DNA of 64,000 bases, taken from contig NW_003200768.1 of the NCBI RefSeq assembly GCF_000006405.1, positions 310,039-374,038 of the forward strand. The letters run 5' to 3'. Of this stretch, positions 61-30,468 are shown one piece after another. The position numbers were made by a program, and so were the translations under genes. The notes beneath the pieces were generated by a model. That model was not told the DNA's origin. It was given only the letters and a program-made list of their open reading frames with translations, and did not search any database. The stretch comes from Perkinsus marinus ATCC 50983 (taxonomy: Eukaryota > Perkinsozoa > Perkinsida > Perkinsidae). Position 1 is the first letter of the stretch, and each line of letters starts with the position of its first letter.

Positions 61-300
61 ATACATTGAAAAACGTTATTTTTTGTGCGAAAAATACCGA
101 GCCTGGGATTCGAACCGGAGATGTTACATGCCGCGCGTCACAGGACTGAACACGACCGACAATCTAACTTCATCAAATTTTAGACTGAAGTTCGCTAAAC
201 CCATGGCGAGCTACGCCATCTCGTCGGGAAGGCCTAGTGTACGCGAACCCTCTGCAGAAGAGCATCACCTGTTTTTGCATGATTTCAGCGTTTTCGAATT
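61..300 (-). repeat. tRNA-like SINE fragment (copy 1)
   Basis: Read on the minus strand, this stretch ends in a B-box-like segment (GGTTCGAATCCC near 108-119). Upstream it has a block around 200-240 that resembles the A-box/anticodon side of a second copy at 17.5 kb. About 80 bases separate the two blocks here and are absent from the other copy. No acceptor stem can be closed, so a functional tRNA is unlikely. A tRNA-derived SINE or degenerate tRNA gene is inferred. Confidence 0.4.
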
Positions 301-1152: not shown

Positions 1153-1290
1153 GGGGGAATATATGCTCGCTTTCCTCAGCTGAGCCTGGGAGTTTCCTCA
1201 CTAGTTGTAGGAGTTTATATACGAGATCAATGAGAATTTCCCAAAACTCCCTCAGAATTTTCATATTGTGGTTGACCATACGCATACATC
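1153..1290 (+). repeat. Dispersed intron-associated repeat, copy R1
   Basis: This copy shares an ordered set of short blocks with the copies at 2.9, 14.4, 16.6, 16.8, 17.2, 18.7, 19.9 and 20.8 kb. The blocks are GGAATATATG-CTCGCTTTCCTCAGCTGAG, GAGTTTCCTCACTA, a TTATATACGA-like block, AATTTCCC and AATTTTCATATTGT. The copy lies outside any gene I can recognise. Confidence 0.6.
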
Positions 1291-1542
1291 GTGACATAGT
1301 AAACACGACAATTCAATTCAGTCTAAATTACTCAACGTTTTAAACGGAAATTATAGCACAATATAAACAGTTACTTCTAATACAGGCATGCTTACCTTTT
1401 GCTTCTTGAGCATGCACTAGAGGGCTCTTCCCTCGACGTTCCACTGCCTTCGGTCGGTAATAATGAGGCTTCAACTGTCTATCCTGTAGGGCCGGTACAG
1501 TATCTACTACCTCAACACTGCGTACGGCTGAGCTCAACTACA

Positions 1543-1631
1543 ACTACTACTACTATTGCTACTACTGCTACTACTGCTACTATTGCTACTACTACTACTA
1601 CTATTGCTACTACTACTATTGCTACTACTAT

Positions 1632-1680
<49 letters not shown>

Positions 1681-1699
1681 GCTACTACTACTACTACCA

Positions 1700-1745
<46 letters not shown>

Positions 1746-1751
1746 CACTAT

Positions 1752-1790
<39 letters not shown>

Positions 1791-1796
1791 CACTAT

Positions 1797-1836
<40 letters not shown>
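1543..1836 (+). repeat. ACT/TAC trinucleotide microsatellite
   Basis: Nearly 300 bases of (ACT)n with scattered GCT, ATT and CAC variants. The long Thr-, Leu-, Ser- or Val-only reading frames here are artefacts of the repeat and are not annotated as genes. Confidence 0.95.
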
Positions 1837-2939
1837 GCCCACCTTCATCTCGATACCCCTCGTTTCTAGCAACCTCATCTAGCTCCCTTATAGATGAGCC
1901 CAACGCCAAGCCTTTGGTCGGCATCACCTAATAGGACCTCAGTCGAGTCTGAACTGATAGCGATAAAAGGCTTACTGGGAAATCGCCATCTTGGCGACAG
2001 ACCTCCGGTTTGATATAACGCGGGGCCTTCTTTTTCACCTTCTGGTATTTCTTATTAACCCTACCAGCAAAACGCCGCACTGAAGTCCGATGAGTTATAA
2101 GCTCCCATGGTGAATTTCGGAGTAGTAGTAGGAGGACCATTTATACAAAAAAAATCTTATCAACTTTGCGCATATTCCTCAACGTTTTAACGCGTGCAAA
2201 AACGTCGTATCTTTGGAAAATTTTTCTCGGGTATAATCGTCGTGAATATTTCCGCACGGAGAGTTATTTCATTTATCCATCATGTCTGTATGATTCACCC
2301 TCATACAAAACCCTTTGGAACAGGTAAACGTATATGATCGGGGTAACTACACAGTATCGCCATTTCCCTCAGTTCAACAGTCTGAGACGGCTCGACAGAG
2401 GCAAGCTAAACAGGTGCCCGTAAGGGGCTTTCGAAATGCAATTCCACAAACTTACAATCAATTCTAGAACTACCTCTGAGTTTAAAAATTGAATTATTGA
2501 GCATCTTGATACGCATTAGCACATAAACGTTGAAGGGCCTTCTCAGGCATTGTACCGACTGGACCAGCACGCAGACACTCTGAGCATAGCGCGGTTCCGC
2601 GAGACTAGTCGCGAGCAGAGGTGTCACTCGAACGGTCTGAGGTCTCGCGACCACTCCAATTTCATCTCAGAGGGAATGCGTGGCAAATTGAGTTCGGATA
2701 TGTACAACGAGAAGCTCCTGAGAAACAGCCTCAAACTGCTCGAGAGCTGAGATCAGCAGATCGCGATATGAACCATACTCTACCAAACATTCGAATGTCG
2801 AAAGCGCGACTTTCGAACCGACTCTCGTAAGACTCCCGCATCGCTTTGGCGTTATTCGTGCAAACTACCCTCGACAAATTCTGTTTGTCGCGATGAATAG
2901 AAAAAATTGACAACTTTTCTAAGAGTGAGCCGTTAGGGA
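1837..2939. other. No gene seen
   Basis: Only short overlapping frames (up to 95 codons) with no recognisable motif, domain or convincing splice structure. Confidence 0.5.
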
Positions 2940-3092
2940 ACCCGACCAGTATGAATATGATGATATATGAAAATTCTGAGAAAATTTCGGGACAAAAATC
3001 TTGCTGGGTTCTGTACATTTCTACCCGAATTTTTATAATTAGCGTGGAAACTTCTCAACTCAGCTGAGGAGACCGGACATATATTCCGACGC
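2940..3092 (-). repeat. Dispersed intron-associated repeat, copy R2
   Basis: On the minus strand this reads GGAATATATGTCCG, CTCCTCAGCTGAG, AAGTTTCCACGCTAATTATA, a CGGGTAGAAATGTACAG block and AATTTTCTCAGAATTTTCATAT. The block order matches the other copies. Confidence 0.6.
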
Positions 3093-3287
3093 TGATTCCA
3101 ATACAGCTGAGGAGTTTGTACTCGTTCGTTCCTATTCAGTTCAGCTTTGATCGCTCTGTTGAAGTAACCGACTCGCAATAAAGTTTATATCATCACTCGT
3201 ATGTGTTGGAATCACATAGTCTCAGTGGGTCTCTCGATCAACGTACATATTTAAAGCCATCGATAAACCGAGTTAATCAATTCATTC

Positions 3288-3535
3288 GAGTTTCACCCTA
3301 GTGATATGAAAAACACTAGTGGAAAATATTGCACGACTACTGCATATCGTTGCGAATATCGCGTTTTTCATCGAGCTTCACGTAAAACAGGTGAAACTCC
3401 ATTATTAATCAATTAGTTCAGTGAAGTCTCACCCGTTTTACGTGAAGTGCCGAAATACTCGGTGAAAAACCCGATACTCGCGGTTATATGCAGTAGTCGC
3501 GAGATATGTTTCTCATCTCACTAGGGTGAAACTCC
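3288..3535. repeat. Palindromic foldback element (MITE-like), two inverted arms
   Basis: Two arms of about 120 bases are imperfect reverse complements of each other. The left begins GAGTTTCACCCTAGTGA and the right ends TCACTAGGGTGAAACTC. Internal landmarks recur in both arms: CGACTACTGCATAT, a GCGAATATCG/CGCGAGTATCG block and CACTTCACGTAAAAC. Single arms recur at 17955-18075 and 18255-18380. The palindrome with conserved ends fits a nonautonomous foldback DNA element. No transposase is seen. Confidence 0.75.
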
Positions 3536-3569
3536 ATCCAACAATTCATTTATCGCGATGACATAAGCC

Positions 3570-6090
3570 TTGTACCGACAGTATCATCGAATCACCGTTT
3601 ATGCGATTGTGCTTATCTGCTTCAGAGTGCCTCGACCGTTCCAGCAAGGGAAACTCGAGGGTCGGCGCAGGTCAGTTCTCAGAAAGCTTTGCTCGAGTTG
3701 CAATATTATTCTCTCGAGATATCGCATATCAAAGTTCGACTTCGGTCAATCTAAAGAGCGCAGGAAGAAAAAGACCAACGATGAAGACAATTCGTTCACC
3801 AGTCCATCCACTAGAAAACTGCGAGAAATGCAGTAAACCTCACTTAGTCTCTACACAGGCTTACATCGGCTACAGGCACTTGATGCTGAAGTCCACCCCG
3901 AGATCATGGACACAGGAGTTCCAGAAATGGTACCTTACAGATAAAGAGGATGAATCTATGCACTGCTCTCAGGCGTAACGGTGACACGTCTCGTCGGCAA
4001 GATGACATCCCTCGTATTGTCGTACACAAGGCGCAACCTCAAGATTCCAACTCAGAAGTGACTAGAGCTTCTAGCTGATGAAAAACTCAGTTTCTGTGTC
4101 TTCCTAGCTTTTGCTCGGGGAGAACCAAGGCCGTGTTCCAGTGGCACGATCAACACGAGCTTCCCGACTGAGAACACAATGGTTGAAAGAATCGATGAAA
4201 CTCTATGGAAATGACGAACTCAGTCGCCTTCCATCAGCGCGTATGCTTTCTCGAGATTGTGAAGGTCTCAGCCATGCATCGTCTCAGGCGATTCGCCACT
4301 ACGTGTTAAAGCGCCGACCTCTGCTCGTCCAAGCACGGTGGCGCAATCGTCGAATTCGAACTTCTTTTACGATACCAGAACAGACTGGGTCGCTCGTAAT
4401 CTGAAGTACTCGGTAGGAACAGTTCTCTTGTGGAGAGGATATGATGTTCGACTAGGTTGACCCTCTCCTCTGTCATAGTCGTGACCATTTGAAGAGATTG
4501 AAGTACCTCACTTCTCACAGGCTGAGATATCCCCAAAAGGTGCGCTCATCGACACTACCGACTAAGGGGGAATGAGCATCGATACGACATTTCGGCTGGG
4601 TTGTTGATGCACCGATGAAACTCTCTTTAACGATGTGTTCCCATGTGATTGTCGTTGTCGCTGCATCCAGTTGAGTTGTAGTTGATCGAAAGTACTGACG
4701 ACAGAGAACATGTGTTTTTTGTGGGGACTATGCTCCGGAAGTTGTAGTTCTTTTGAGCCAACTGGTCGACAACTTCGCCGGTCGGTCTCAATATACAGCG
4801 TTGGTGGATAACACTCGCGAAACACATCACAGCGTTTCCCAACGTGAAGTGCGTTGCCCGGAAGAGCTATAGTGCTGAGACATCACAATTCTCTTGATCG
4901 ACCCTTACTGATGCAGTCCTGGCCTATGCGAGTGGTTTTCAGTGCAACCTCTGGTACTGGCTATCGCCGGAGATTCACTGGATATTGGGTTTATTTTATA
5001 GGAGCAAATTGCGCCTTCAACTCCAGTAACGCCTTGAGTATACCTCAAGTAACGCCTTAAGTATATCTTGAGTAACTCTTAAAGTTGCTCATGGACGTGA
5101 GGTGCCTTTAGTGAAGTAGCCTTGTGAAACAGGCCCACTGTTGAGAAACTGACCGACCGGTCGTCAGTAGATTTCTGTAACCCCTCATGGACAGTGTGTC
5201 ACTTTCAGCTGAGGCTTACGTGAATTGTGAACAGGAAGACGATCAAGGGATACTCGATGGTGACGACTCAGTGTCTACGTCATACCACTCCTTTCCCTCT
5301 TCTCCCAGTCCCGACGCCGCCAGATGAAGATGTAATCCCTACACAGTGCCTCGATGATGCTCTGTGCGGTGTCTCTCCTGGTTCATCTACTATGATCAAC
5401 CGAAACTACAACGTTCTTCTGAGGACGGGTCAGGAAGTAAGCATTGATCTCGCATCATTAAGAGCTGACGTTAGGAGGCACACATGAAAAATTATGTGAT
5501 TATAGAGTATCATGAAAAGATGGATCATTCATGGCGGATTTATAGATGTGAACCTCTCCTAAGCACTCGAAATGTTGATGCCCATCAAAGCTCAAGTAGA
5601 GCGTTACATCATCTTTTCTGAACTGTTCTGGAAGTCCCTGAGCTAAGAATAGATTCGATTCCACTCTGTATTTCAGCTCCGCAAGAAGGTATCATATCTC
5701 AACGCAACTGAGTTGGTCCAAATGTGAGTCAACTTCGTTTACAGTGATGTCTACATCTGTACAGCTACCGAGTAACGTCATCGCAGCCCAGTCTACTGAA
5801 GCCCTTGAACGAGAGGCTTGTATTAGAGCCGCGGTCAAAGGGCTACATACGCTTCCGCATTCTACCATTGACAAGGGAAATCCGGACAAGGTCAGGCCGG
5901 CCTCCGTGATTGTGTCATCAGTCTGGTTCGTTTTAGGGTTATCGTCACCATCACGCCTTCTGACATGACTGTTCCTCATGCAATAAGGGAAAGGCTTGTT
6001 TTTGATTTGACATATATTGCATCGTTACCATGATGATAGCAAACCTATGTGTTCGTGCTTTAGTGGTCTCTGGGGAATGTAACGCGACAA
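3570..6090. other. Gene-poor stretch, possibly decayed mobile DNA
   Basis: Short frames on both strands (up to 125 codons at 3601-3978) give no domain I can name. A local 15-20 base repetition of CCTCAAGTAACGCCTTAAGTATA type sits near 5030-5085. A translation near 4900-5010 faintly resembles a retroelement RNase H segment, but not enough to call. Confidence 0.4.
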
Positions 6091-6190
6091 NNNNNNNNNN
6101 NNNNNNNNNNNNNNNNNNNNNNNNNNNNNNNNNNNNNNNNNNNNNNNNNNNNNNNNNNNNNNNNNNNNNNNNNNNNNNNNNNNNNNNNNN
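6091..6190. other. Assembly gap (100 N)
   Basis: Exactly 100 N bases, typical of a scaffold gap of arbitrary size. Confidence 0.98.
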
Positions 6191-7290
6191 GTGGCCTGCA
6201 ACTTCGATGAGCTCTGTCGAGCAATATAACAGACGAGCAACGTAACAAGGACAAATTCAAGCACAAATTCTCAAGTATAGTCTTTTCCTGCACTTGCTGT
6301 GTCTAACGCTCCGTATATGTACAGCTATAGTGTCCTACTGAGATGACCTCTGCATCATCCCTAACCACGTGGCCGTATGCGTGAGTGAGGAGTCTGAAGC
6401 TGTCACCGTGTGCCTGACAGCCTCCTCGTTTGGTCAACGTATATGAGTATTATTAACTAACTATATTTTTCATAGTAACACAGATAAAATATATTATACA
6501 CCCTGTATTCAAAATGTCTTTATTTTTGCCCTGCCTCACAAATATCTATTTGTTGTCCAGCCGAACTTTAGCAACGCAACAGATTAATGAGACAAACTAG
6601 ACCAATGAATACGTTTTCTCATGGTCAACACATCACACTCAATACTGCTCTATGCAATCAATTGTCACGTCAACTTCAACTCTCCAGCTCGAACCGATCG
6701 GTCATCGGTGGAGGCTGCGCTAGGACGCGGTTCAAGAGCTGATCGAAGAGCCTGAGGAAAACCCTATGGACGAACCACGAGCAGCAAACTCATCATACTT
6801 GTTTTTTTCAGGTGCATCAACAGACGCATCAAGATCTTGATGAAGTATGGTATCAGCCATGTCCTTTTGAACTCCGCCGCATAATTTACTGAATGTCGAC
6901 CTTTTGCTCTCTACGTGTATTTGCTGTCGAAGTCTGAAGAAAAAAGTCAACAACGAGCCGCACCTCGACAACACCTATGTTGCTTTTATTCGATTCCACA
7001 TACTTATCGGGATATCGGTAATGCCCCATATTTATAAAATATATATTAAATTATATGGGTTATCGTGGGGCATATTATTATATATAGTAATTGTAGGTTA
7101 TAGCCCCATAATAATATCTAATATTTATATATCCCTTCATTATAATAGATCTATATGAATACTGAAAATATAATATTTAATAATAATATTTAAGTATATG
7201 AATATATACAACTACGGTTAGTGGATGAGAACTTTTTTTTCGTAGAAACTCTCCTTATGCAGTGTTCCACAAAGACAGAAAATTATCTCA
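6191..7290. other. Gene-poor, with AT-rich core at 7020-7220
   Basis: A minus-strand frame at 6732-6974 (80 codons, Ser/Gly-rich end) has no recognised motif. From about 7020 to 7220 the composition becomes strongly AT-rich, with runs of ATAT and TAATAAT, and no coding signal. This is the 3' flank of the CEP164-like gene on the minus strand. Confidence 0.45.
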
Positions 7291-9717
7291 CTATGCTAGG
7301 GCTCGGTTGAGGTCGACCACTTCCCTATCTTTCTCCACCAACAGTCTTCGCTGAGCTGCGTCTTCCTCAGCGAGCACCCTAACCTTTTCTCGACCCTCTG
7401 TTAGGCGGTCTCGAAGCATCTGTACCTCGCTCGTCTGCAACACAGGCGAGATGCCTTCATCAAATGCTGATTATGATCAGCTCACCTGCGTGGCAATAAG
7501 ACTATCCAAATACTCATATTTCGCCTGAACTTCCTCCAACTGTTCAGTGAGCTCCCCAACGATTATTCTATTGCTAGCCGCTTGGGCACTCAGTTGAGCT
7601 TCGGCTTTCTGACGGGCCTGACACACAACATTTCTAATTAAATAATTATATTATAATACATTTCATCCCAATGAGAAATTGAAAATATATAAATGCCAAC
7701 TGCAGAATGGTGTTACACTACTCAGTTTACACTACTAGTGTAAACCGCCGGGTCCTGTACACTTTTTTTGCGATAATAGTGTACTATTTTTCAATCGCCC
7801 ACCTCTTTCTCCCTCTCAAGTGCCTCCATCACCTCCTCTCTGGCCGCTTCGGCTGAGCTGAGTAATTCCGCAGCAGCATCGCGCTCCTCGCGCAGCTTTT
7901 TACGATGTCTTTCAGAATCTGCCAACGTTGCTCGAGAACCAACATTCTGTCCAACCATAGCCGAGGAAGCCATTTCAACCAATAAAACAATCAGTACCAC
8001 ACCCTGACCAACTTCACGATAAAGAGCTGATAACACCGTCAAACAAATGGATTTGATTCCAGGCCTTATCAAGTGGTCTGTATGCATACTATGCGAAAAT
8101 TTAATTTCCGAAATTACCTCCGAGCTCGCTCTCGATCTTCCCCTTCTCCATTTCCATTTTCTCGATCTTCAACCTCAACTCGGCCAGCTCAGCTTGAGCA
8201 GCCTCTGCACTGCGCGGGGGCGGTTCAAAAAGCCTATCAGCGGAGCTCTCCCTGAACGATCAAGTTCGAGCCGAACTCCTCTCCTTCTTCCCACATACTC
8301 AGTAGCAGCTACATCGTCATGATCGGGTACATTCGAATCGATTTCCTTCAGCAGATCGCGAGCTCCTGAAAGTAGACCAATCGCCGCCGCCACACTATCG
8401 GTAAGCCTTAGTCGTATGTGTTAGTACGTCGTGGAGACTACTCAACCAAGCTGAGTAGTAGTGATGTTTTCAATCAGCTTAATTCACTGCTGCCAATTTT
8501 ATCGAAATTCTTCATAGGAGAGAAATTAAAATTATTAATTTTTTTTATTATCGAAACCGACCAAGCCATCCAGGAGTACCTGCTGGACCATCATCAACTC
8601 CCTCCTGATCGTTATCAAACGATCTGAAAATAAATAACGTCTGAAGCAACGAGTATGGCAATCCTCACTTTTCACTGACTATTATCTGTGAAGGCAACCG
8701 AGCAGCAGCCTCCACCACGGGCTCGCCAGGCAGTTCAAGATCAGGTACGATGCGCGCTGGAGAATTCTCTACAGTAAAACGCCATCCCCGGCTCCTCCAC
8801 ATATCACGAATTCACCTGTTGTGCTATGGTTGACCGGACCACCCTTTATAGGCTCAGCACTGACTTGGGCCGAAGACCGCTGATCCGTGGTAGCGAATAG
8901 CCACGACTGTGATACACTAGCCGACTAAACCGAAACACTAGGCTGAAGTAGTGTAGGACCGTGCGAACCGACCAGCTCTTCTCGAGAAATCCTCCCACGT
9001 TTATACTGCTCAACAGCTTGCTGATAATACTGATCATATCTGCGATTAGAATATTGAAGACTACTCTTCAGTGGAGTCCTACGGATGATCCCAAACGCTT
9101 TCCTTCGTCTTCGTGTTGTGGAAAAATACATCACCACTGACCGTCTGGCATTGGACCCAGGGTTGGGGAATCGGGGTTCTCAACGCCTGATCGGCAGAAA
9201 GAGAAAAATACGGAAGGAATACACATCCGCAGAGAAGGATGAATACATAGGAAAAATGGAAAAGAAAAATACATAGAAAACAAGAAAAGGAAAAATACAT
9301 GGAAAAACAAAAAAAGGAAAATACATAGAAAAACGAAAAAAAAGGAAAAATTTATAGAAAAAGAAAAAAAGGAAAAATTTATAGAAAAACAAAAAAAGGA
9401 AAATACATAGAAAAACAAAAAAAAGAAAAATTTAGAGAAAAACAAAAAAAGGAAAATACAGGGCGCATCAGTGGTATTCACCTGTCTGGCTATCCAAAAC
9501 AGGTCACGATCCTTCACGGTGTCCAAACCAAGCCACACAGCATAGTCCTGAATCTCCTGCTTGGTCGGCTCCTCAGGTACCTAAAGTGGATGCTAACAAT
9601 ATGGGGAAAATCGTCGATGCTCACCTGCTGAATTTTCCCCGCGGATACTCCGACGATTTTACCGAGTACAGCAGTCGGGGCTTTGGTCGCTGCAGAGACT
9701 GTTGTCGTCATCAACAC
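7291..9717 (-). CDS. CEP164-like WW-domain and coiled-coil protein (multi-exon)
   Basis: Exons joined by eye on the minus strand: 9717-9625, 9580-9482, 9186-9083, 9039 to about 8973, then further short exons ending in TAG at 7291. GT-AG introns are mostly 45-50 nt and keep frame. Exon 2 reads KQEIQDYAVWLGLD...LFWIARQ. Exon 3 holds a WW domain (PWVQCQTVSGDVFFHN...SVWDHP), continued by YDQYYQQAVEQYKRGRI. This order, a short helix then WW then WDHP-x-D-x-x-Y, is that of the N-terminus of centriolar distal-appendage protein CEP164. Downstream exons around 8255-8125, 7910-7800, 7620-7490 and 7440-7291 are Glu/Lys/Arg-rich coiled coil. A role at the basal body of a flagellated stage is inferred. 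The product is about 400 residues, far shorter than animal CEP164. Middle exon edges are uncertain. Confidence 0.7.
9241..9463. repeat. A-rich tandem repeat inside CEP164-like intron
   Basis: Repeats of about 22-37 bases built on GGAAAATACATAGAAAAACAAAAAA fill most of the intron between the LFWIARQ exon and the WW exon. On the gene's strand this is a T-rich array ending close to the acceptor at 9187. Phe-rich frames here are not genes. Confidence 0.85.
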
Positions 9718-10499
9718 TCCCGAGTCAACTAGAAGCGCATCTCAAGAGTGTTGCGAACCCAAGCAGAGAAATATGCGGCACTTCTGTGGAATTCGACCTC
9801 GCTTAGAATGAGTTGAGATTTCATGATGAAACACCGTGAAAAAATCACATTCGTATGATGGTGGCAATTTAAAAGAATGGATTCCAACAGTAATATGGTC
9901 AACATGGCGCCCTGTGGGAGCTGTGTAACTGCCCACGAGATAGCACAGGGTAGATTAACAATAACCATGCCTTGGGAAACCACGCCCAATAATCTGCTAT
10001 GTGTAGTTATTATGCTCTCAGTCCGAGGCTATCGCATATACGACGTAATATTGTCTCGATCGGCCCGCAACAGAGCGAGCTGAGCAATGTCGAGCTCAGC
10101 GCAGTCAGTGACCGACTACAAGGTGCGCTGTGACAGTCGCGCTCGTCCGAATATTGTGACGTGACAAAAACGTCAAAACAGAAATCGCTTCGCTCCGCTT
10201 GTCCCTTTCCCAAAAACTCTGAGTGTCGCTCGCCCGCTATTATCGATCACCTAATCGATTCGCAAAAGCTCTCAATACCACCCAACCCATCATCAACTAC
10301 TGTAATAATGTAAATGCCATGATGACCACTTTCTGTCAATCCTCCGATTGTTGGTGAGGAAGTAAAATTAACCTCTAAGAAGTACTGAGTAAGTTCATTA
10401 TATAGCCGTATTATAGGCATCTGGGATTGGACACCTCAACCTATCTCATCGTTCACCTACGGCTAGATGGATCCTCTGCTCGCTATACTCTCTTAGCTT
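9718..10499. other. No gene seen
   Basis: Short frames only. A CGCTTCGCTCCGC motif near 10182-10195 recurs elsewhere in the window. The rest has no recognisable feature. Confidence 0.5.
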
Positions 10500-10960
10500 G
10501 CTAATGCTTGTGTGGGTACGTTGCAGTTGGTACATATCTGATTGATCAGAATAGTGATGATAAGCATACTTGGTCCGTGTTCCAGAGTAGCCCATGGCTG
10601 TGAAGAACACTGTATTATCATCTTTCGGGGCTGAATTCAATGTTAGAGGATCGAGTAAATGATGACCAACTCTTAGGACACCTTCAGACCGCAAAGCGGT
10701 ATGAGAACAAATCAAACAAGTTATCCCTGTCTGAAGCTCTTTAAATGGTAATTTCCTAAGTCGATTCATTTGATGATGATACGCATACTTGGTCCGTGTT
10801 CCAGAGTAGCCCACGGCTGTGAAGAATACGGTATTATCATCTTTCGGGTCTGAAATGATCGACTGTTGATTGTTATATGGTACATGATGACCAACTCTTA
10901 GGACACCTTCAGACCGCTAAGCGGTATGAGAACAAATCAAACAAGTTATCCCTGTCTGAA
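10500..10960 (-). repeat. Two-unit tandem duplication with ORF remnant
   Basis: Units at about 10540-10740 and 10772-10960 share two long blocks: GGTCCGTGTTCCAGAGTAGCCC...GTATTATCATCTTTCGGG, and GATGACCAACTCTTAGGACACC...TTATCCCTGTCTGAA. Read on the minus strand, both units encode a similar peptide (TGITCLICSHTA, RSEGVLRVGHH, PKDDNTVFFTA, GYSGTRTKYAYHH). The unit nearer 10960 has an in-frame TAG where the other has TTG. This looks like a decaying coding repeat of unknown family. Confidence 0.6.
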
Positions 10961-11284
10961 TACCAACGATATTCCCTATTCGCTGCTCATTCCGCAGGTT
11001 GATCACTTCATTGCTAGACCTCCATGCAGCGGATGTCAAGTCACCGAATATCCGCTGCGTTAGGTACATTTCCACACATCTGTTTTATCGCTACAAACTA
11101 GCCTCGGTAATAATTTTTAGCGCTTACAAATTCTGTGTAGGATTCGGCACAACTGTGCCGGAATCGTGTCAGAACCAATCGGCGCTATCTAGGCTCTGCT
11201 CTGCTCACTTTCTCCAATGACGGGTTCAACTCTACTCGCAGTCATTTTCAACTCTTCCAGATTGATTGTATGGCAAGTCAATCT

Positions 11285-11575
11285 TGGTGTGGCATAGTTG
11301 CCCCGATCGGAGAACTCCATTGTATCAAGTCAATCTTGGGGTGGCATAGTTGCCCCGGTCGCACAAATTGATGGTAAAAGGCAACCCTGAGGTGGCATAG
11401 CTGCCCCGCCGAAGATATTAAATGGTATCGAGGCGCATCGTGGAATGGAATAGTGGTCCCGGCGGCACAAATTGATTGTATGAAGACAATTTTGAGACAG
11501 CATAGTTACCCGGCAGAAGGAATTTATTTTATTGAGGTTCATCGTGAAATGGCATAGCTGCCCCATTCGCAAAAT
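11285..11575. repeat. Degenerate satellite, about 52-53 bp period
   Basis: The core GTGGCATAGTTGCCCCG recurs at about 11289, 11341 and 11393, with weaker copies near 11446, 11500 and 11549. Flanks such as ACAAATTGAT and GTATGAAG also repeat. The same core heads the cleaner array at 44.2-44.5 kb. Confidence 0.8.
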
Positions 11576-21553: not shown

Positions 21554-21566
21554 AAGTGATCAATCA
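21554..21566. repeat. LINE target-site duplication, 3' copy
   Basis: AAGTGATCAATCA, identical to 26040-26052, immediately next to the (GAATT)n tail of the element. Confidence 0.85.
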
Positions 21567-21703: not shown

Positions 21704-24700
21704 CTATATCTTACGACCAGAATTGTGAACGAAATCCAAAGTAGTACGAAGCATGTCAGCCGATGAATACAACAACATGAACATTGAATGATCGACAGAC
21801 GTAGCATGTATGCCAGAAAGAAATTCAGGGGTACGCCAAGGGGTCAGAGCAGGGCAAGAAAGTAAGAAATGTTGTATAGAGTCCCGTCCTATACCACACG
21901 AAGGACATAGTACAGGGTGAAAGAGTGGGAGGACACCTAACCTGAGACGGAAAAGCAAGGATTGCTCCACACGGCCAATCGAAGGCAAATGGATTGCATC
22001 TGTGTTCCAAACATATGCTCCTCCGGGAAGTAGACGTTCTACCGGAAGCTTGTGAGCAGTTTGCTCGAAGATTCGTTTTTTCCTCTGAGACAATCTGGTT
22101 AGACAGCTTTCCCATGATTCGAGCACAACAGGTTGTAGTGTTTCGAGTTCAGCTTTGGCTCGTCGGTCCACCTCGTCGTGCAGCAAGAGTCCGACATGAG
22201 CTTTAAGCCAATAACCAGTGATGGTGATAATAGAACCCTGTGGGGGAAGTCGGGGGAGAGTTAGAAGCTGTTGTAAGCATTCCCAAACCGTCTGTCGATT
22301 GTTATGTCGTTGGAGCCAACCGCGGGATAAACCTTTTAATGCTCCCTGGCTATCACTAACGATAAGAAGCTTACCACCCTGTAGAAGAGACTGTCTGCAT
22401 GACGTCAACCTAGCGACATCCTTGATCGCGTGAGACAAGGCAGCTAGCTCTGCTTCGGTAGATGAATGGATAGCTGTTCCGAGTGGTCCTTGTCCTCGAA
22501 TACCTTGCGACACGATTAGGCCGACCTCGTTGGGATAAAATGTCCAAGCATATCCTGCCGAACGGGGCTGCTGTTCTGTAAGGTCATCACGATAGGAGGC
22601 GTCCACAATGAGAATGTGGTATCCCTGTGCAACATAGGAAAGAAGTTTTTGGTAGGATGCAATCCGGTATGCCTGTCGGTCGGCGTTCTGCGGAACCTCG
22701 CTATTCAAGGACAGGTCAAGTGATATAATTCGTCGTGCCTCCCCGAGAGGGAGTGGGGGGTAGAAATGTAGGCGTACCTGAGGAGTGGTAGCAACGTTAG
22801 AATCTATAAGAGGCTGACATGCTAATGACAGATAATGTTGTAATGAATGTAAATGTCTGAGTTGGGGGATCCGTAGATGTTCATCATACCAAGGGACCGG
22901 GTCCACATACTGTTGTTGTGGGAAGAAGAGGAGACCACAGGCTTGGGGGCACCGAGAAATACGAGTGATTAGTTTATCCCAATAGGTGGTAATTAGTGGG
23001 ATTAACTCGGGTACTCCCAGTAACCGTTTAGACATTCCAGCCGAAGTCAAAATGCCGCACCCTAATACTGCCTTCACTGCTCGGGAATACCCCCCCTCTA
23101 TCTTTGACCACCTTGCCGCTGTTACCCCAAAACTCCATGCAGTGCTGCCGTAGGTGAATAGACACTGGACATATTGAATGAAGAGAAGTCGTAGCGATGT
23201 GGTTGGAGTGGCAGAGAGCCGTTTGATAATTCCAACACGACTAGCACAACGACCTCGAATATAATGTATGTGAGCATCCCATGTTAACTTTTGGTCCCAG
23301 ATTACCCCCAGAATTTTTAGTGTTAGCCGTGCTTCAATGTGCACGTTATTAATAATGATTTGGTTTTGCTGGATAGGTGTACGCCTCCTACCGATGAAGT
23401 ATATGAGCCCAATCTTATCTTCTGCCAGGCACATGCCGTTATCCTGGAGCCAAGTCTCAATGAAAGATAGTGCGTGCCTGATTTTGTTGTCCACTTCTTC
23501 CTGGGAGGTTCCCTCAAACCAGATGATTATGTCATCCGCATAGGCGCAGAAACCTGCTATGCGGAGGTGTGGGGGGAGCCGTTCTTTCAGGTTATATAAT
23601 AATATTAAGAGTGGGTTGATATATAGGGCCCAAAGGAGTGGTGATAGTACCGCTCCTTGCGATAAGCCCTCGCGTTGGGTGTGCCATGTAGATCGCTCGC
23701 CGTCTACGTCCACAAAGAACTTTCGACCCCGTAAGAAGCCCCAGATATATCGTGCTATGTGAATGTTGATGTCAGCTTCGAACAAGCGGGTTCGAAGTAC
23801 AGCTAACGTACACGTGTCGTAGGCTTTTCGTAAATCTAAGCTTAGGAGTCCGACGAGCTTTTTCCTTTTGACGAGAGTTCGGACCGAGTGGTGCACGTAG
23901 GCTAGTTCTTCCTCGGTGCTCCGTCCCGGTCTAAAACCAAATTGGTATGGGCTGATCGTCGTTCCATCGCGTGAGGGGAATCTTTCGAATGCCGTCTCCA
24001 CGCGGTATAGTAGCATACTTTCTACTAGTCGCGCGAAGATGTTAGTTATGCAAATTGGTCTATAGTTGGCACACGGTGTAGCAAGGAGAGTACGCGGTTT
24101 TTTCCGGATGAGGATGACTCTCCCGCGGCGCCATTGGTGAGGGACATCTAGTGACAAGAAGGACTTATTGATCAGTTTCAGACATAGCTGATTAGCTTTG
24201 TCTGTTCCCTGTCGGAGTATAGTGATGGACACCTGATCCGGTCCGGGTGCGGTCGAAGTATTTATCTTCCCCAAAGCCCGGTCGAATTCTTCTTGGGTGA
24301 AAGGCTGTGCTTGTTTGGCGTCAAAGGCTTCTTGATGTCCCGCTGTGGCCACTTGGGGGTTAAACAGAGACGCCTTTTTCGTTTTGTGAGTTTTCATAGT
24401 AACGGCACGCTGTCTCCATTGAGCTTTGACTGCCATGGAAAGTCGGCTTTTATATATCTCATCTGACAAGTATGTAGCATATTTCTGGGCCGCCTCTCGT
24501 CCAGCGTGCCCCTCCACGTCTATCCGCTGCCGTCTATCCTGTCCAACTGCCATACTCTTCACTACACGCCACATTTTCCGAGAGTTGGACGAGAGACTCT
24601 GTGTAAAATTTTCCCAAGATTTTTGTTTGGCATGGTGTAGTTCTTGAAGATATTGGTTAACAAGCCGCCTGAATTTAGTTTGTAATTTGTCATAGGGTTT

Positions 24701-25774
24701 TCCCGCGGATTTGCGGTCATTCATAGCACGCCGGACGCGATTTTTACTCAGACGAAGCTTATTTAATGAGTGATTCCAGTAAGAATTATATATTGGGATA
24801 TTACCCCTCGGGATACTGGTTTTTGCAGCCTTTTTATAGCCTTGGGTTAAAGTGGTATATATATGTGCAACCGAGGATTCCCAATCGATTTGGTCTAGAT
24901 TTTTGTCCAGTTCCCTCTGAAATTTACCCCAGTCCGCCTTTTTATAATTCCACCTACTATAATTGGCTCTCTGTCCACTCTGTCGCACAAAGCCAGCGGT
25001 GGTCTTGATCCCGATCTTCTGGGGGAGGTGGTCCGAGGCTGCCAGCGAGTTCTCCAAGAGGTGCCGTGTACAGGATAGGAGCAAATCCTTCGTGACAGCA
25101 GTGATGTCGATACTAGACGTGCCCTGTTGGCCTTGAAAGGTAGGGGGGTCGTGGATGGAGTTGAGAAGTTTGTAATGGGCTTCGCGGAGCCAGGTGTAGA
25201 CTTCTTGGCCTTGGGGGTTGGCGTCGCACTGAGTGGAACCAGACCATGCTGGGTGGTGGCCGTTGACATCGCCTACCACAATACAGTTCGCCGCTGGTAG
25301 TTCTAGTTGTAGTTGTGGTGGGTTGGGTCCTTGATGGGGTCTGATATAGATGTTAACCACCTTGAGGGGGGAGGGCAGTGTTGGCGAGGACAGTTCGACC
25401 CCCAGAGCCGAGTAGCAGTAATTAGTGTCGTGGAGGGGGATGCGGAGGAAGATTTTGTAGTGGAGTGGTCGTCGAATCAGGATGAGTAACCCACTACTCC
25501 GGCGTCCGCGATGGTCATCTGGGTCGTCTTGAGGGAGGTACTCCCCCTCCAAGTGCTCTACACCATAGTTGCGAAATGCTAGTGAATGGTGTGGGCCGTG
25601 GAAGGTCTCTTGAAGGCAGACCACGTCTGGGGAGGATCGACGCAGGTATTGAAGTAGTTCCAGCTTGCTGCCGCATAGTCCATGTATGTTATAGGAGATA
25701 ACCGTCAGGCATAGCTTTCGACGTGCTGGGCGTAGCGGAGGCGCTGGAGGGGTGATAACGGGGAGTCGGGGCAT
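21704..25774 (-). CDS. LINE ORF2-type polyprotein: AP endonuclease, reverse transcriptase, RNase H
   Basis: 1356 codons without a stop, start at 25774. Residues about 20-250 are an APE-type endonuclease: SYNIHG (27-32), QETF, GDVNGHHPAW (169-178), SSIDI (221-225), SDH (248-250). RT spans about 500-790: YRPICITNIFARLVE, PYQFGFRPGRST, LLSLDLRKAYD, GLSQGAVLSPLLW and the catalytic YADD near 746-749. An RNase H domain follows (LIVDASYRD, STEAELAAL, IVSDSQGALKGL, KAHVGLLLHDEVDRRAK), with all acidic residues and the late His present. The C-terminus has a CPSCG...H...C knuckle, as in I/Jockey-like elements. The enzyme nicks target DNA and primes reverse transcription there. No ORF1 is seen upstream. 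Confidence 0.95.
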   Translation of the reverse strand: MPRLPVITPPAPPLRPARRKLCLTVISYNIHGLCGSKLELLQYLRRSSPDVVCLQETFHGPHHSLAFRNYGVEHLEGEYLPQDDPDDHRGRRSSGLLILIRRPLHYKIFLRIPLHDTNYCYSALGVELSSPTLPSPLKVVNIYIRPHQGPNPPQLQLELPAANCIVVGDVNGHHPAWSGSTQCDANPQGQEVYTWLREAHYKLLNSIHDPPTFQGQQGTSSIDITAVTKDLLLSCTRHLLENSLAASDHLPQKIGIKTTAGFVRQSGQRANYSRWNYKKADWGKFQRELDKNLDQIDWESSVAHIYTTLTQGYKKAAKTSIPRGNIPIYNSYWNHSLNKLRLSKNRVRRAMNDRKSAGKPYDKLQTKFRRLVNQYLQELHHAKQKSWENFTQSLSSNSRKMWRVVKSMAVGQDRRQRIDVEGHAGREAAQKYATYLSDEIYKSRLSMAVKAQWRQRAVTMKTHKTKKASLFNPQVATAGHQEAFDAKQAQPFTQEEFDRALGKINTSTAPGPDQVSITILRQGTDKANQLCLKLINKSFLSLDVPHQWRRGRVILIRKKPRTLLATPCANYRPICITNIFARLVESMLLYRVETAFERFPSRDGTTISPYQFGFRPGRSTEEELAYVHHSVRTLVKRKKLVGLLSLDLRKAYDTCTLAVLRTRLFEADINIHIARYIWGFLRGRKFFVDVDGERSTWHTQREGLSQGAVLSPLLWALYINPLLILLYNLKERLPPHLRIAGFCAYADDIIIWFEGTSQEEVDNKIRHALSFIETWLQDNGMCLAEDKIGLIYFIGRRRTPIQQNQIIINNVHIEARLTLKILGVIWDQKLTWDAHIHYIRGRCASRVGIIKRLSATPTTSLRLLFIQYVQCLFTYGSTAWSFGVTAARWSKIEGGYSRAVKAVLGCGILTSAGMSKRLLGVPELIPLITTYWDKLITRISRCPQACGLLFFPQQQYVDPVPWYDEHLRIPQLRHLHSLQHYLSLACQPLIDSNVATTPQVRLHFYPPLPLGEARRIISLDLSLNSEVPQNADRQAYRIASYQKLLSYVAQGYHILIVDASYRDDLTEQQPRSAGYAWTFYPNEVGLIVSQGIRGQGPLGTAIHSSTEAELAALSHAIKDVARLTSCRQSLLQGGKLLIVSDSQGALKGLSRGWLQRHNNRQTVWECLQQLLTLPRLPPQGSIITITGYWLKAHVGLLLHDEVDRRAKAELETLQPVVLESWESCLTRLSQRKKRIFEQTAHKLPVERLLPGGAYVWNTDAIHLPSIGRVEQSLLFRLRLGVLPLFHPVLCPSCGIGRDSIQHFLLSCPALTPWRTPEFLSGIHATSVDHSMFMLLYSSADMLRTTLDFVHNSGRKI

Positions 25775-25971
25775 TCAAAAGTGAGGGAGAAGGAAGGGGG
25801 ATAGTTAACCGACGTAATAGACGAGAGCGAGGAGGGGTGAAATAGTTGATAGAAAATAGAGATCAGTGTATGACGACGAGTACGAGTCAGCGTCGTGTTG
25901 AAGGTGTTAAGCAGTTGATTCTAGCCACTTCTTGGTCACCGCATAGGGGGACGTGCTAGAGTGGTAGGGTT

Positions 25972-26039
25972 GATCTCTACTTGGTGCCGGAGAACCCGGT
26001 CACCCCCACGCGACGCTGACGCGTAGAGATCTATGGGGG
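25972..26039 (-). ncRNA. HDV-like self-cleaving ribozyme at LINE 5' end (predicted)
   Basis: The fold was made by eye on the minus strand from C1 at 26039. P1, 7 bp: 26039-26033 (CCCCCAT) with 26009-26003 (GTGGGGG). P2, 9 bp: 26031-26023 (GATCTCTAC) with 25980-25972 (GTAGAGATC). P3, 3 bp: 26022-26020 with 26012-26010, loop of 7. P4, 4 bp: CCGG 25999-25996 with CCGG 25990-25987. J4/2 ends C-C-A-A before P2, matching the C-N-A-A pattern around the catalytic cytosine (25984). Strand order P1, P2, P3, P1', P4, P2' is the nested double pseudoknot of HDV ribozymes. Predicted cleavage is just 5' of 26039, exactly the target-site-duplication edge. Such ribozymes release the 5' end of R2 and other LINE transcripts. 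Confidence 0.72.
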
Positions 26040-26052
26040 AAGTGATCAATCA
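26040..26052. repeat. LINE target-site duplication, 5' copy
   Basis: AAGTGATCAATCA, identical to 21554-21566, directly abutting the CCCCC start of the element on the minus strand. Confidence 0.85.
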
Positions 26053-27342
26053 TTTCACGCAGTGCGGTGTCATTTGGCTTGTTATGGGATTCTGCGCACA
26101 TTAATGTGTTTGCGTGCTTCCTGAGATCTATAGCTAATGATGGTAGTTCGCCCCGGAAGGCACGTTACCCTTCCCTCTCCTCTTGAGTCACTCCTCTAAG
26201 TCTCCGTAGCTCAGCTACCTCTACAAGCTCATCAGTACTTGTGTTACCCAGTCGTGGATTTTACTATCACATCACACCCTTCCGTTACATCTACTCGAAC
26301 GCCTTCCAGGCTCAAGGGCGAGTCTTCCCAGTGCTGCCTCAAGAGTGTCGATGTCTACGGAGTGAATATTGAGGAACGACAACGATACTAACTATAATAT
26401 AGCTACTATCAATATCATTAACCAATACTCCGTTAATAGCTCCGAAACGGGAGCACGTGTACTTAGCGTTGTGTGTTCGACCTATGCGTGCTAGCGGAGC
26501 GATCGATGCCGTATTTGTGGGAAAATGTCCGACGTGTACCCGAACTGCAGAGGCCATAGGCGTATACATTGTCAATGAACATCTGTATGTTGAGTGATAA
26601 GCCTATTTAATACTTCAGGAATGAGCTCATTATTAATAAAAGCTAACCAGACTAACGCTGGTCATTGAGCCACCTTCCTGAGGAAGTACTCGAGTTGTTA
26701 ATTTCACCACTGCGTGACAGGTTGGATTCACGAGGCTTCTCACAAGAGCCGTCGTGCGCCTATTCGTTCTCGTATCTGGTAATTCTCGCCCAACTTGAAC
26801 GACGCTTCTCTACAGAAGGTAAGTCACCTCAACAACGCTGATGTAACATGATCTCATATCGACTCCTCGTAGACAAGACTGTGTTTTTAATAGCTGCACG
26901 GCAAGCAGCGTGTAAGCTAGCCATTTGTCTTAACACATCGTCATGCTCTTGAAATCGAGTAGTGGGCTCATGGAACTACTAATCCTCTTATGCTTTGGAA
27001 AGATGTAACGTCGGACTTTGTAGCCAGAAGGCTTATGCAATGCCACCATTAGCAGCAGAATTGCGCTACAGTTTCTTATGTGACACGGTCAGAGCCACGA
27101 ACATAGTCAGACTACAACCACTAGGTGACACAACCCAAACGGTTATGTTCGAATCGCAGGAGACAAGTATACACACTCCGCAGCGTGCATCATCAGCGTT
27201 GGTCACAAATCGATAATATTCCGCAGTTCGAGCTATACAGTCGCTATCGGGCATTGCATGTACTATAGGCGACTTTTGAACATAAGAGGTACGATTAACA
27301 GCTTCGCCATTGGCAGTAGTTATCGAATTGTCATATTCCACC
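26053..27342. other. No gene seen; upstream region of aldolase 1
   Basis: Short frames without motifs. The last ~25 bases before the aldolase ATG (TATCGAATTGTCATATTCCACC) are identical before the second aldolase gene, so the duplication included a little upstream DNA. Confidence 0.5.
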
Positions 27343-28428
27343 ATGCCCGCTCGTGAGGTTCTAAAGTATCAGACTGAACTCATTCAGACTGCGAATGCTA
27401 TCTGCACTCCCGGTAAGGGGATCTTGGCTGCTGATGAGTCCACTGGTACCATCAAGAAGCGTTTCGATGCTGCTGGTATCGAGAACACTGAGGAGCATCG
27501 TGCTGCCTACAGATCTCTTCTATTTACTGCACCTGATGCTGGCAAGTACATATCTGGCTCCATTCTATTCGAGGAGACTCTTTTCCAGAAGAATGCTGAA
27601 GGTATCCCGATGGTCGACTTGCTTAAGAAGCAGGGTATTATTCCCGGCATCAAGGTCGATAAGGGACTTGTCCAGCTCGCTGGTACCGATGGTGAGACTG
27701 CCACTCAGGGACTTGATGGTCTTGCTGAGCGTTGCCAGAAGTATTACGAACAGGGTGCTCGCTTCGCCAAGTGGAGAGCTGTTCTGAAGATTGACGAAGC
27801 CAAGCAGATGCCTTCTCAGCTCTCCATCGAGGAGACTGCGCACACTCTTGCTCGTTACGCGTCTATCTGCCAGGCCAACGGTCTTGTTCCTATCGTCGAG
27901 CCCGAGACATTGATGGATGGTGATCATACTATTGAGACTTGTGCCTATTACACTGAAAAGGCTTTATCCGCTTTGTTCAAGGCTCTTAGCGATCAGCATG
28001 TTCTTCTCGAGGGTTGCCTCCTCAAACCTAACATGGTTACTGCTGGTGTTGACTGCCCTGTGCGCCCCACCCCTGAGAAGATCGCTGAATTGACTGTCCG
28101 CACTCTTGCTCGTACTGTCCCTCCGGCTCTTGCAGGAGTTGCCTTCCTTTCTGGTGGTCAGAGCGAGGAGGAGGCTTCCGTCAATCTGTCCGCTATGAAC
28201 GCACTCCCTAACGAGCGTCGCCCATGGTCTCTCACTTTCTCGTTCGGTCGCGCTCTCCAGGCCAGTGCCATCAAGACTTGGTCTGGTAAGGAGGAGAACA
28301 CCAGGGCTGCTCAGGAAGCTTTCCTTGTTCGTGCCAAGGCTAACCATGAGGCCCGTCTCGGCAAATATCATAGTTCTGGTGACAAGTCTGCTGATAAGTC
28401 TCTGTATGTGAAGAACTATGTCTACTAA
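27343..28428 (+). CDS. FBA: Fructose-bisphosphate aldolase, class I
   Basis: 361 codons from [10 protein letters not shown] (an in-frame upstream ATG at 27310 is less likely, since family proteins start near here). Cleaves fructose 1,6-bisphosphate to DHAP and glyceraldehyde 3-phosphate in cytosolic glycolysis. Family residues are present: [50 protein letters not shown] (Schiff-base Lys), [15 protein letters not shown] (C1-phosphate loop), [15 protein letters not shown] and a C-terminal Tyr (NYVY). Intronless, unlike most neighbours. A near-copy lies 1 kb downstream in the same direction. Codon choice favours C- or T-ending codons, as expected for high expression. Confidence 0.95.
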
Positions 28429-29415
28429 ACTGATTCATATTGACAGTTGATTTTCTCAAAGAGTGATATATAATTGTGACTATCAGATTGCTGTTGTAAG
28501 CGCGATACGCGAATGTCCTTACTGTCGTGTTTGAAGTAAAAGTGCATGATGAACACACCTTGAAATTGGTGTTAGTGTGTCTAGGACCACCAATACATCG
28601 CCAATCTTGACAGCTGATACTCGAGATTACTAACTTATCACATGATACTCCCCTTGACTAGTTCTTTAGTGGGCAAACGCTCACCAATGTCACTCAGTGA
28701 TCCTGAAACCTATTTATGTTGATGATTACAACATGAATGGATGTCTCGTATTCGTACTCATCCGGATTGGGATCCATATGGGAGTAAGTGTGTAGCTTCG
28801 ATCATCTGTGAAGACTTAGGAGATATTCAGTATCTTGTTTGTGAAAGAAAATCATTGCCCTATCAAGAATTGGTAATGAGAAAATTGAGAACTCCGTCAC
28901 ACCACCACTCTTGGCGCACATCGATGATGACCGCTGTGGAAGTCTGGAAGTCGTAGGGTATGGCTTGCGTGTGTGTTTACCAGCCAGGCATTAGCGAGGG
29001 GAAATTCGGCAGCTGCTTTTTGAGCGGACTTCCTCTTGAGAGAGCGCTACTTCAACTTCGAATCTATACCATCTAGTTGGAGAAATATAAACTCTAGTTT
29101 CAGTATCAATTTCACGCTAGGACTCGGACCAATTCGTAGAACAATTCTAACAACACAAAATAAGGTGTATTTTACACTGTTGGAGAATCATTTTCGAGGA
29201 ATCTTCTACAGCTGTAGTTTGAGCCACGGTGGGACAGATGTACACAATCCTCAGCAAACATCAGCGCTTGACATAGATCGCTAGTATTAGATTGGCTTAG
29301 TGTTTTCTGGTGTACCAGGTCAACAGTGTTTGGTGGAGTATAGAGGTATTCTGTAATGTCAAAGATGATTTTAGTGGTTCTACTCTCAGTAGTTATCGAA
29401 TTGTCATATTCCACC
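28429..29415. other. Intergenic between the two aldolases
   Basis: No supported gene. A 71-codon frame at 28741-28956 has no motif. Shared sequence resumes only about 25 bases before the second ATG. Confidence 0.5.
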
Positions 29416-30468
29416 ATGCCCGCTCGTGAGGTTCTAAAGTATCAGACTGAACTCATTCAGACTGCGAATACCATCTGCACTCCCGGTAAGGGGATCTTGG
29501 CTGCTGATGAGTCCACTGGTACCATCAAGAAGCGTTTCGATGCTGCTGGTATTGAGAACACTGAGGAGCATCGTGCTGCCTACAGGTCTCTTCTTTTTAC
29601 TGCACCTGATGCTGGCAAGTACATATCTGGCTCCATTCTATTCGAGGAGACTCTTTTCCAGAAGAATGCTGAAGGTATCCCGATGGTCGACTTGCTTAAG
29701 AAGCAGGGTATTATTCCTGGCATCAAGGTCGATAAGGGACTTGTCCAGCTCGCTGGTACCGATGGTGAGACTGCCACTCAGGGACTTGATGGTCTTGCTG
29801 AGCGTTGCCAGAAGTATTACGAACAGGGTGCTCGCTTCGCCAAGTGGAGAGCTGTTCTGAAGATTGACGAAGCCAAGCAGATGCCTTCTCAGCTCTCCAT
29901 CGAGGAGACTGCGCACACTCTTGCTCGTTACGCGACTATCTGCCAGGCCAACGGTCTTGTTCCTATCGTCGAGCCCGAGATATTGACGGACGGTGCTCAC
30001 ACCATTGAGACATCTGCTTACGTCACTGAAAGGGTTCTATCCGCTGTGTTCAAGGCTCTTAACGATCAGCATGTTCTTCTCGAGGGTTGCCTCCTCAAGC
30101 CCAACATGGTTACTGCGGGCGCCGACTGCCCTGTGCGCCCTACCGCTCAGAAGATCGCTGAATTGACTGTCCGCACTCTTGCTCGTACTGTCCGTGGTCA
30201 GAGCGAGGAGGAGGCTTCAGTTAATCTGTCCGCTATGAACCAACTCCCCACGGAGCGTCGCCCATGGGCTCTCACTTTCTCCTACGGTCGTGCTCTTCAG
30301 GCCAGCGCCATCAAGACTTGGTCTGGTAAGGAGGAGAACACCAGGGCTGCCCAGGAAGCTTTCCTCGTGCGTGCCAAGGCTAACTCTGAAGCCCAGCTCG
30401 GAAAGTATCAGGGTTCTGGTGACGAGTCTGCTAAGGAATCCTTGTATGTGAAAAACTATGTTTACTAA
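29416..30468 (+). CDS. Fructose-bisphosphate aldolase paralogue lacking the phosphate-binding loop
   Basis: Same start ([10 protein letters not shown]) and very close in sequence to the upstream gene, in frame to the C-terminal NYVY. Relative to it, 33 bases are missing where copy 1 reads [19 protein letters not shown]; here VRGQSEEE follows directly. Eleven residues are lost: a core beta strand plus the Ser-Gly that binds the C1 phosphate in class I aldolases. The Schiff-base Lys (LLKPNMV), Asp, Glu and C-terminal Tyr remain. Substitutions cluster around residues 195-215 ([20 protein letters not shown]). The reading frame is intact, so it may be expressed, but normal catalysis is doubtful. 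A moonlighting role, a pseudogene in the making, or an assembly deletion are alternatives. Confidence 0.9.

What the first reader, a model, noticed from the sequence alone, without database searches (positions are those of the whole stretch)
25972..26039. HDV-like self-cleaving ribozyme at the exact 5' end of a LINE
On the minus strand, 68 bases fold by eye into the nested double pseudoknot of HDV ribozymes: P1 7 bp, P2 9 bp, P3 3 bp, P4 4 bp, and a J4/2 reading C-C-A-A before P2. The predicted cleavage site (just before 26039) coincides with the edge of the 13-bp target-site duplication, found independently. HDV-like ribozymes are established at the 5' ends of R2 and several other LINEs. An example in this lineage, on an APE/RNase H-type LINE without ORF1, may be undescribed. 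P1.1 is weak (a U-C in L3 with G-A after P1'), the main uncertainty.
Basis: partly seen in the sequence, partly recalled or inferred. Interest (0 to 1): 0.85.

Follow-up and report, generated by a model that had tools for sequence, protein, structure and literature searches.

The report
Self-cutting RNA starts a Perkinsus retrotransposon
The jumping gene in this window begins, to the base, with an RNA fold of the kind that cuts itself (an HDV-like ribozyme), and related elements in the same genome keep the fold while changing its letters, so it is very probably how these elements free their own front end from longer transcripts.

Summary
A descriptor of the fold matches the window once, at 26039; 3 of 1500 shuffled windows matched. 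The host is a Perkinsus. The core motif lies at 40 places in its genome against 1 for a reversed control, including the 5' ends of two intact LINEs only 37-39% identical in protein and a non-autonomous family. Over 28 distinct rows 94.4% of pair cells are standard pairs, against 37-47% in slid registers, with changes on both sides in 16 of 25 pairs; only 5 of 35 rows are free of any non-standard pair. Across 30 unrelated flanks identity falls from 0.91 at +1 to 0.21 at -1. Target-site duplications abut +1 in the five elements tested with both ends in hand. Rfam gives no hit. New member of a known kind (R2, L1Tc); no alveolate report appeared in my open-paper searches.

The parts
25972..26039 (-). 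HDV-like ribozyme, 68 nt; predicted cleavage just 5' of 26039
26033..26039 (-). P1 5' strand (pairs with 26003-26009)
   Evidence: C-G to U-A at the second pair in 7 distinct rows
26023..26031 (-). P2 5' strand (pairs with 25972-25980)
   Evidence: all nine pairs change on both sides in some row
26010..26022 (-). P3 hairpin with L3 (26013-26019); L3 C26018-A26017 form P1.1 with 26001-26002
26001..26009 (-). P1 3' strand followed by the P1.1 3' strand (U26002-G26001)
25987..25999 (-). P4 hairpin
   Evidence: all four pairs change on both sides in some row
25981..25986 (-). J4/2 with C25984, the presumed catalytic cytosine
   Evidence: this C is kept in 34 of 35 aligned matches
25920..25971 (-). 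partly conserved leader stretch downstream of the ribozyme; a stem-loop in groups B and C, not convincing in this copy
21704..25774 (-). LINE ORF, 1356 aa: APE endonuclease, reverse transcriptase, RNase H-like residues
21567..26039 (-). whole LINE, with a (GAATT)n tail at its 3' end
26040..26052 (-). target-site duplication, 5' copy, TGATTGATCACTT
21554..21566 (-). target-site duplication, 3' copy

Best explanation
It is a self-cleaving ribozyme with the HDV fold that forms the first 68 nt of a LINE in a Perkinsus genome. When the LINE is transcribed, by read-through from a host promoter or from its own, the RNA folds into the nested double pseudoknot. The J4/2 cytosine (C25984) then acts as acid-base catalyst and cuts just 5' of 26039, removing upstream sequence and leaving the exact element RNA with a 5'-OH. 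That RNA is copied by target-primed reverse transcription, so each new copy again starts with the ribozyme, flush with the target-site duplication. Shown here: the fold, its covariation, the uniform 5' ends and the duplications. Inferred: cleavage, the catalytic role of C25984, and release from longer transcripts.
For: Single descriptor match in the window, at the element's 5' end (shuffles). A covariance model made from three group-A sequences with only P2, P3 and P4 as pairs finds LINE families with quite different helix letters (L024, L023, L048; E 2.4e-12 to 8.2e-11) with no non-standard pair in those helices. Covariation over 28 distinct rows, including P1 and P1.1, which the model did not contain as pairs. 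The presumed catalytic C is kept in 34 of 35 rows, the L3 U and the L3 G in 34 of 35 each. 30 unrelated flanks share the same +1. Duplications abut +1 in five of five elements tested. The window copy has all 25 pairs standard.
Against: No Rfam HDV-like model matches. Only 5 of 35 aligned rows (window, L023, L057, L048, L037) have every pair standard. The descriptor misses the closest relatives L002, L003 and L004, each through one or two lesions in P3, P2 or P1, and its loose form also matches two places (in L031 and L040) away from any ribozyme. All nine complete group-D rows have two adjacent U-U in P2; 5 of 8 aligned group-C rows have U-U in P1.1; eight of 34 rows with a P1 5' strand have a P1 mismatch; L031, L071 and L072 have lost P4 or the core, and P2 is damaged in L006, L063 and L044. 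RNAalifold, which cannot draw pseudoknots, prefers an extended P3 hairpin that competes with P1 and P2. P1 covaries at one of seven pairs. The copies fall into about five related groups, so independent events are far fewer than cells. Duplications were not found at 19 other locus tests whose 3' ends were mostly unknown or outside the held sequence.
Confidence: 0.92

Rival explanations
1. The fold is a conserved but non-catalytic RNA structure, for example a binding site for the LINE protein or a translation aid, that merely resembles an HDV ribozyme.
For: LINE 5' regions can have such roles: the abstract start of PMC12222951 in the listing says that the R2Tg protein 'binds a pseudoknotted', where the listing is cut. 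Cleavage was not tested. The many copies with a broken pair are no obstacle to this reading.
Against: What is conserved is the HDV geometry: P1 flush with +1, P1' right after P3', P1.1, and the J4/2 C then N-A-A. A binding site has no reason to place P1 exactly at the element end in 30 unrelated insertions.
Confidence: 0.06
2. The exact 5' end is set by a transcription start at +1 from an internal promoter, and the ribozyme is absent or dispensable.
For: In trypanosomes the corresponding 77 nt is both internal promoter and ribozyme (PMC4035085, passages read). A partly conserved stretch lies downstream of the ribozyme here as well.
Against: A promoter would conserve DNA letters; here helix letters change while pairing is kept. 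The two roles do not exclude each other.
Confidence: 0.05
3. A chance fold in this copy, or a dead relic.
For: 30 of 35 aligned rows have at least one non-standard pair.
Against: 3 of 1500 shuffled windows match; this copy has every pair standard, an open 1356-aa ORF and an exact 13-bp duplication; relatives covary.
Confidence: 0.02

Closest known systems
L1Tc/ingi Pr77 ribozyme of trypanosomatids (L1TcRz; PMC4035085, passages read)
   Same: HDV-like ribozyme within the first 77 nt of a LINE, shared with short non-autonomous partners (NARTc, RIME, SIDER); target-site duplications at the ends; host mRNAs receive a spliced leader.
   Different: Another eukaryotic supergroup (recalled); helix letters not compared here; poly-A tails there, short pentamer tails here; cleavage and promoter activity tested there, not here.
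R2 LINE ribozyme of animals (PMC3774820: abstract, passages, and sections 12 and 18 read)
   Same: HDV-like double pseudoknot at the LINE 5' end; cleavage in Drosophila at the exact 5' junction; conserved L3 G.
   Different: R2 is site-specific in 28S rDNA and co-transcribed with it, and in many species P1 uses rRNA sequence; here the ribozyme lies wholly inside the element, in dispersed APE-type LINEs.
Ribozymes of HDV and other HDV-like ribozymes (fold recalled)
   Same: Nested double pseudoknot with P1, P1.1, P2, P3, P4 and a J4/2 cytosine.
   Different: No match to any Rfam HDV-like model; another biological context.
Further LINE ribozymes of Webb 2009 and Ruminski 2011 (recalled; not read; Ruminski 2011 not held)
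   Same: 5'-end HDV-like ribozymes in several non-LTR clades.
   Different: Metazoan hosts as I recall them; the element here is in Perkinsozoa.

Membership tests
HDV-like self-cleaving ribozyme | Nested double pseudoknot P1, P2, P3, P4 with P1' directly after P3' | tested here: met
HDV-like self-cleaving ribozyme | P1.1 between L3 and the nucleotides just after P1' | tested here: met
   CA/UG in this copy; 88.9% of cells paired, one of two pairs with changes on both sides; U-U in 5 of 8 aligned group-C rows
HDV-like self-cleaving ribozyme | Catalytic cytosine in J4/2, followed by N-A-A | tested here: met
   C25984; C in 34 of 35, first A in 33 of 35, second A in 35 of 35
HDV-like self-cleaving ribozyme | Conserved U and G in L3 that pair with each other | tested here: met
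   U in 34 of 35, G in 34 of 35; their reverse wobble pair is described in PMC3774820 section 12 and is not testable by sequence
HDV-like self-cleaving ribozyme | Mg2+-dependent self-cleavage just 5' of P1 with a 5'-OH product | not testable with these tools
   needs an in vitro assay
HDV-like self-cleaving ribozyme | Match to an Rfam HDV-like covariance model | tested here: not met
   a curated subset, not a defining feature of the fold
LINE 5'-end ribozyme (R2 / L1Tc kind) | Predicted cleavage site coincides with the element's 5' end | tested here: met
LINE 5'-end ribozyme (R2 / L1Tc kind) | Carried by elements encoding a LINE reverse transcriptase | tested here: met
   three intact ORFs with RT and APE
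APE/RNase H LINE without ORF1 | APE, RT and RNase H in one ORF, no upstream ORF | tested here: inconclusive
   APE and RT met; RNase H not found by Pfam even at E 1, but its recalled D-E-D-D residues are invariant in three ORFs; that the 265-nt leader leaves no room for an ORF1 is inference

The most novel reading that the evidence does not exclude
In this alveolate, whose genome carries spliced-leader sequences in quantity, an HDV-like ribozyme plus a partly conserved downstream stem-loop form a transferable ~120-nt 5' module, used by several LINE families and by a non-autonomous family. It lets them cut themselves out of longer transcripts and stay free of the spliced leader. The same solution, a ribozyme leader shared between LINE and short partner in a trans-splicing host, would then exist in trypanosomes and in Perkinsus, far apart in the eukaryotic tree.
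Probability: 0.45. Interest if true: 0.72.

Novelty: new member of a known kind. Interest (0 to 1): 0.6.

Why it matters
It extends LINE 5' ribozymes to the Perkinsozoa, on which my searches found nothing. One genome shows at least four helix-sequence groups of the same ribozyme on autonomous and non-autonomous elements, a natural covariation set that makes the assay easy to design. It also makes a broader question testable: whether ribozymes are how retroelements keep a defined 5' end in hosts that cap mRNAs by spliced-leader trans-splicing.

Tried and rejected
Rfam as an identifier: no HDV-like hit at gathering or relaxed thresholds.

MAFFT alignments of the diverse set (A2, A3) misplace P4 and P2' of group C; they were not used for pair counts. 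The model-guided alignment A7 was used instead; it leans towards P2, P3 and P4, but P1 and P1.1 were not pairs in the model.

Of the 40 pattern places, all are held in loci. 37 sources were given to the counting search: L005, L010 and L049 were left out as 5'-truncated or chimeric. 35 matched; L070 and L074 did not reach the threshold. L007 lacks the P1 5' strand and was dropped from the flank count, leaving 34 rows and 30 unrelated flanks.

Duplication searches that found nothing usable: nine loci, among them the LINE of L003 (only a 9-base match in L018, and a 16-base match in L016 that marks a local duplication of L015/L016), and ten group-D loci, where only ~250 nt of downstream sequence was held and the ~1.2-kb element's 3' end lay outside.

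An idea of tandem ribozymes in L005 was dropped: it is a chimera of a group-D 5' part and a group-A part. L010 has two weak matches about 250 nt apart that I did not resolve.

Viral contigs: no relative of the protein and no pattern match.

Full report
What is there. On the minus strand the LINE runs from 26039 to 21567, with a 265-nt leader, one 1356-aa ORF (25774-21704) and a (GAATT)n tail, and it is bracketed by a perfect 13-bp duplication TGATTGATCACTT. The ORF has APE-type endonuclease and reverse-transcriptase domains. An RNase H region is not found by Pfam even at E 1, but the residues I recall as its D-E-D-D set are invariant in three LINEs of this genome. A neighbouring transporter gene is 80-92% identical to its three best hits, all Perkinsus olseni or P. 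chesapeaki, while hits named for other organisms have E-values of 1e-12 or worse, so the host is a Perkinsus, phylum Perkinsozoa.

The fold. The 68 nt from 26039 to 25972 give P1 (7 bp), P2 (9 bp), P3 (3 bp), P4 (4 bp) and a J4/2 with C25984. A descriptor of the fold matches once on both strands of the window, at 26039; without the P1.1 rule and with only the C of J4/2 required it matches twice. In dinucleotide shuffles the full descriptor matched in 3 of 1500, and in none with P2 of 8 bp or more; the loose form averaged 0.43 matches per shuffle over 150 shuffles. The descriptor was written after seeing the motif, so this is a check on chance, not a blind prediction.

Relatives. DNA search of the same genome finds ten places with the 5' end or part of it, the window included. 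Protein search finds two intact LINEs, L023 and L024, at 39% and 37% identity. Both carry the same fold with other letters, starting 128 and 166 nt before the open frame as listed mechanically from its first TTG. L023 matches the full descriptor; L024 matches only the loose form, because of a U-U in P1.1. Over the 51 loci then held, the full descriptor found L023, L037, L038 and L048 besides the window copy and missed L002, L003 and L004, which have single lesions in P3, P2 or P1; the loose form also matched two unrelated places. A pattern from the P3-L3-P1' core occurs at 40 places with up to 2 mismatches, against 1 for the reversed control pattern. The sequences fall into groups A (this LINE), A' (L068, L073), B (L023 kind), C (L024 kind) and D. 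Group D is a non-autonomous element of about 1.2 kb: two copies are 95% identical over 958 nt, and in the parts fetched (from about 230 nt on) the longest stop-free stretch on the sense strand inside the element is 151 codons. D and B share a (GCGTT)n tail.

Covariation. A covariance model from three group-A sequences, holding only P2, P3 and P4 as pairs, finds groups B and C and aligns 35 matches from 37 sources. On 28 distinct rows 94.4% of pair cells are standard pairs. With the 3' partner slid by 1-3 columns it is 36.7-46.7%, and with shuffled partners 78.6% on average, 0 of 500 reaching the observed value. Changes on both sides occur in 16 of 25 pairs: P2 9 of 9, P4 4 of 4, P3 1 of 3, P1 1 of 7, P1.1 1 of 2. 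That count of pairs (16) and the count of further pair types are not by themselves above the column shuffles (91 and 245 of 500 reach them); the number of such cells (108 against 31.7) and the covariation score are (0 of 500). P1 and P1.1 were not pairs in the model, so they are the less biased test: 95.2% and 88.9% paired. The presumed catalytic C is kept in 34 of 35 rows. Against the reading: only 5 of 35 rows (window, L023, L057, L048, L037) have every pair standard; the nine complete group-D rows all have two U-U in P2; 5 of 8 group-C rows have U-U in P1.1; eight of 34 rows with a P1 5' strand have a P1 mismatch; and L031, L071 and L072 have lost P4 or the core. I read this as decay of old copies plus tolerated mismatches, which is inference. 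RNAalifold, which cannot draw pseudoknots, offers a competing extended P3 hairpin.

The 5' end. Among 34 rows with a P1 5' strand, flanks fall into 30 unrelated sets. Over 95 within-group pairs, identity is 0.21 at -1 and 0.18-0.34 over -20 to -1, but 0.91 at +1 and 0.77-1.00 over +1 to +20. The element therefore starts where the ribozyme starts. In the five elements tested with both ends in hand, the duplication abuts +1: window 13 bp, L023 13, L024 11, L060/L075 12, L064/L076 24-27. In each the tail-proximal few bases of the duplication could also belong to the pentamer tail, most seriously in L024, whose (TTGAG)n tail leaves 7 bases beyond it; in L064 the element's first C also follows the 3' copy, so the boundary there is open by one base. 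In some searches no duplication was found at 19 other loci, whose 3' ends were mostly unknown or outside the held sequence.

Mechanism. The simplest account is that of R2 and L1Tc: the ribozyme cuts the element RNA out of a longer transcript at +1, and target-primed reverse transcription copies that RNA to its end. In Drosophila R2 cleavage is at the precise 5' junction (PMC3774820: abstract, passages, and sections 12 and 18 read). In trypanosomatids the same 77 nt is promoter and ribozyme and is shared by LINEs and their short partners (PMC4035085, passages read). Cleavage here is inferred, not shown.

Spliced leader. P. marinus has 21- and 22-nt spliced leaders, found on its cDNAs (PMC3101222, passages read). 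This genome has 76 sites within one mismatch of 21 nt of the longer form and 31 of the shorter, against none for reversed controls. None of 34 element flanks of up to 60 nt carries it, nor any of 76 loci at one mismatch or fewer. This fits, but does not prove, that the transposed RNA escapes the leader.

Novelty. LINE 5' HDV-like ribozymes are an established kind. Five searches of the open PMC library, seen as listings, returned nothing that by title or abstract start concerns such ribozymes in Perkinsus, dinoflagellates, other protists or alveolates: no paper, one paper on Bacillus anthracis typing, two (phage ribozymes; a review of early evolution), two on Plasmodium genetics. Subscription papers and Repbase are not covered, and two key papers were not held. 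I file it as a new member of a known kind.

Noticed in passing
window 25920-25971 (minus); L023:1383-1434, L024:1323-1374, L048:1336-1389, L052:154-206: A second, partly conserved stretch directly downstream of the ribozyme (ACTC..., then GAG...). It folds into a stem-loop with z -2.8 to -3.9 in groups B and C, -1.7 in D, and only -1.4 and +0.4 in group A. Possible promoter or translation element.
   Followed up: partly
L060 with L075, L064 with L076 (group D): A ~1.2-kb non-autonomous family with its own version of the ribozyme and the (GCGTT)n tail of the group-B LINE, probably mobilised by it.
   Followed up: partly
window ~21600; L023, L024 and L075 3' ends: LINE and non-autonomous 3' ends share a CCGG...AATA motif just before different pentamer tails, (GAATT)n, (GCGTT)n or (TTGAG)n.
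   Followed up: no
L013:516-829: The first ~314 nt of the window LINE, 96% identical, joined to unrelated sequence: a deletion derivative or chimera.
   Followed up: no
L015, L016: Two copies of a 114-nt 5' fragment of the LINE in a locally duplicated region about 3.85 kb apart.
   Followed up: no
L010:1214-1279 and 1465-1527: Two ribozyme-like matches (28 and 22 bits) about 250 nt apart in one locus.
   Followed up: no
window 27310-30468: Two similar neighbouring ORFs that look like class I aldolases (recognised by eye in the ORF list, no domain search): a tandem duplication.
   Followed up: no
G000:C102 (sites 222 to 11554): Five spliced-leader sequences spaced about 2.8 kb apart, like a tandem SL RNA array.
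   Followed up: no
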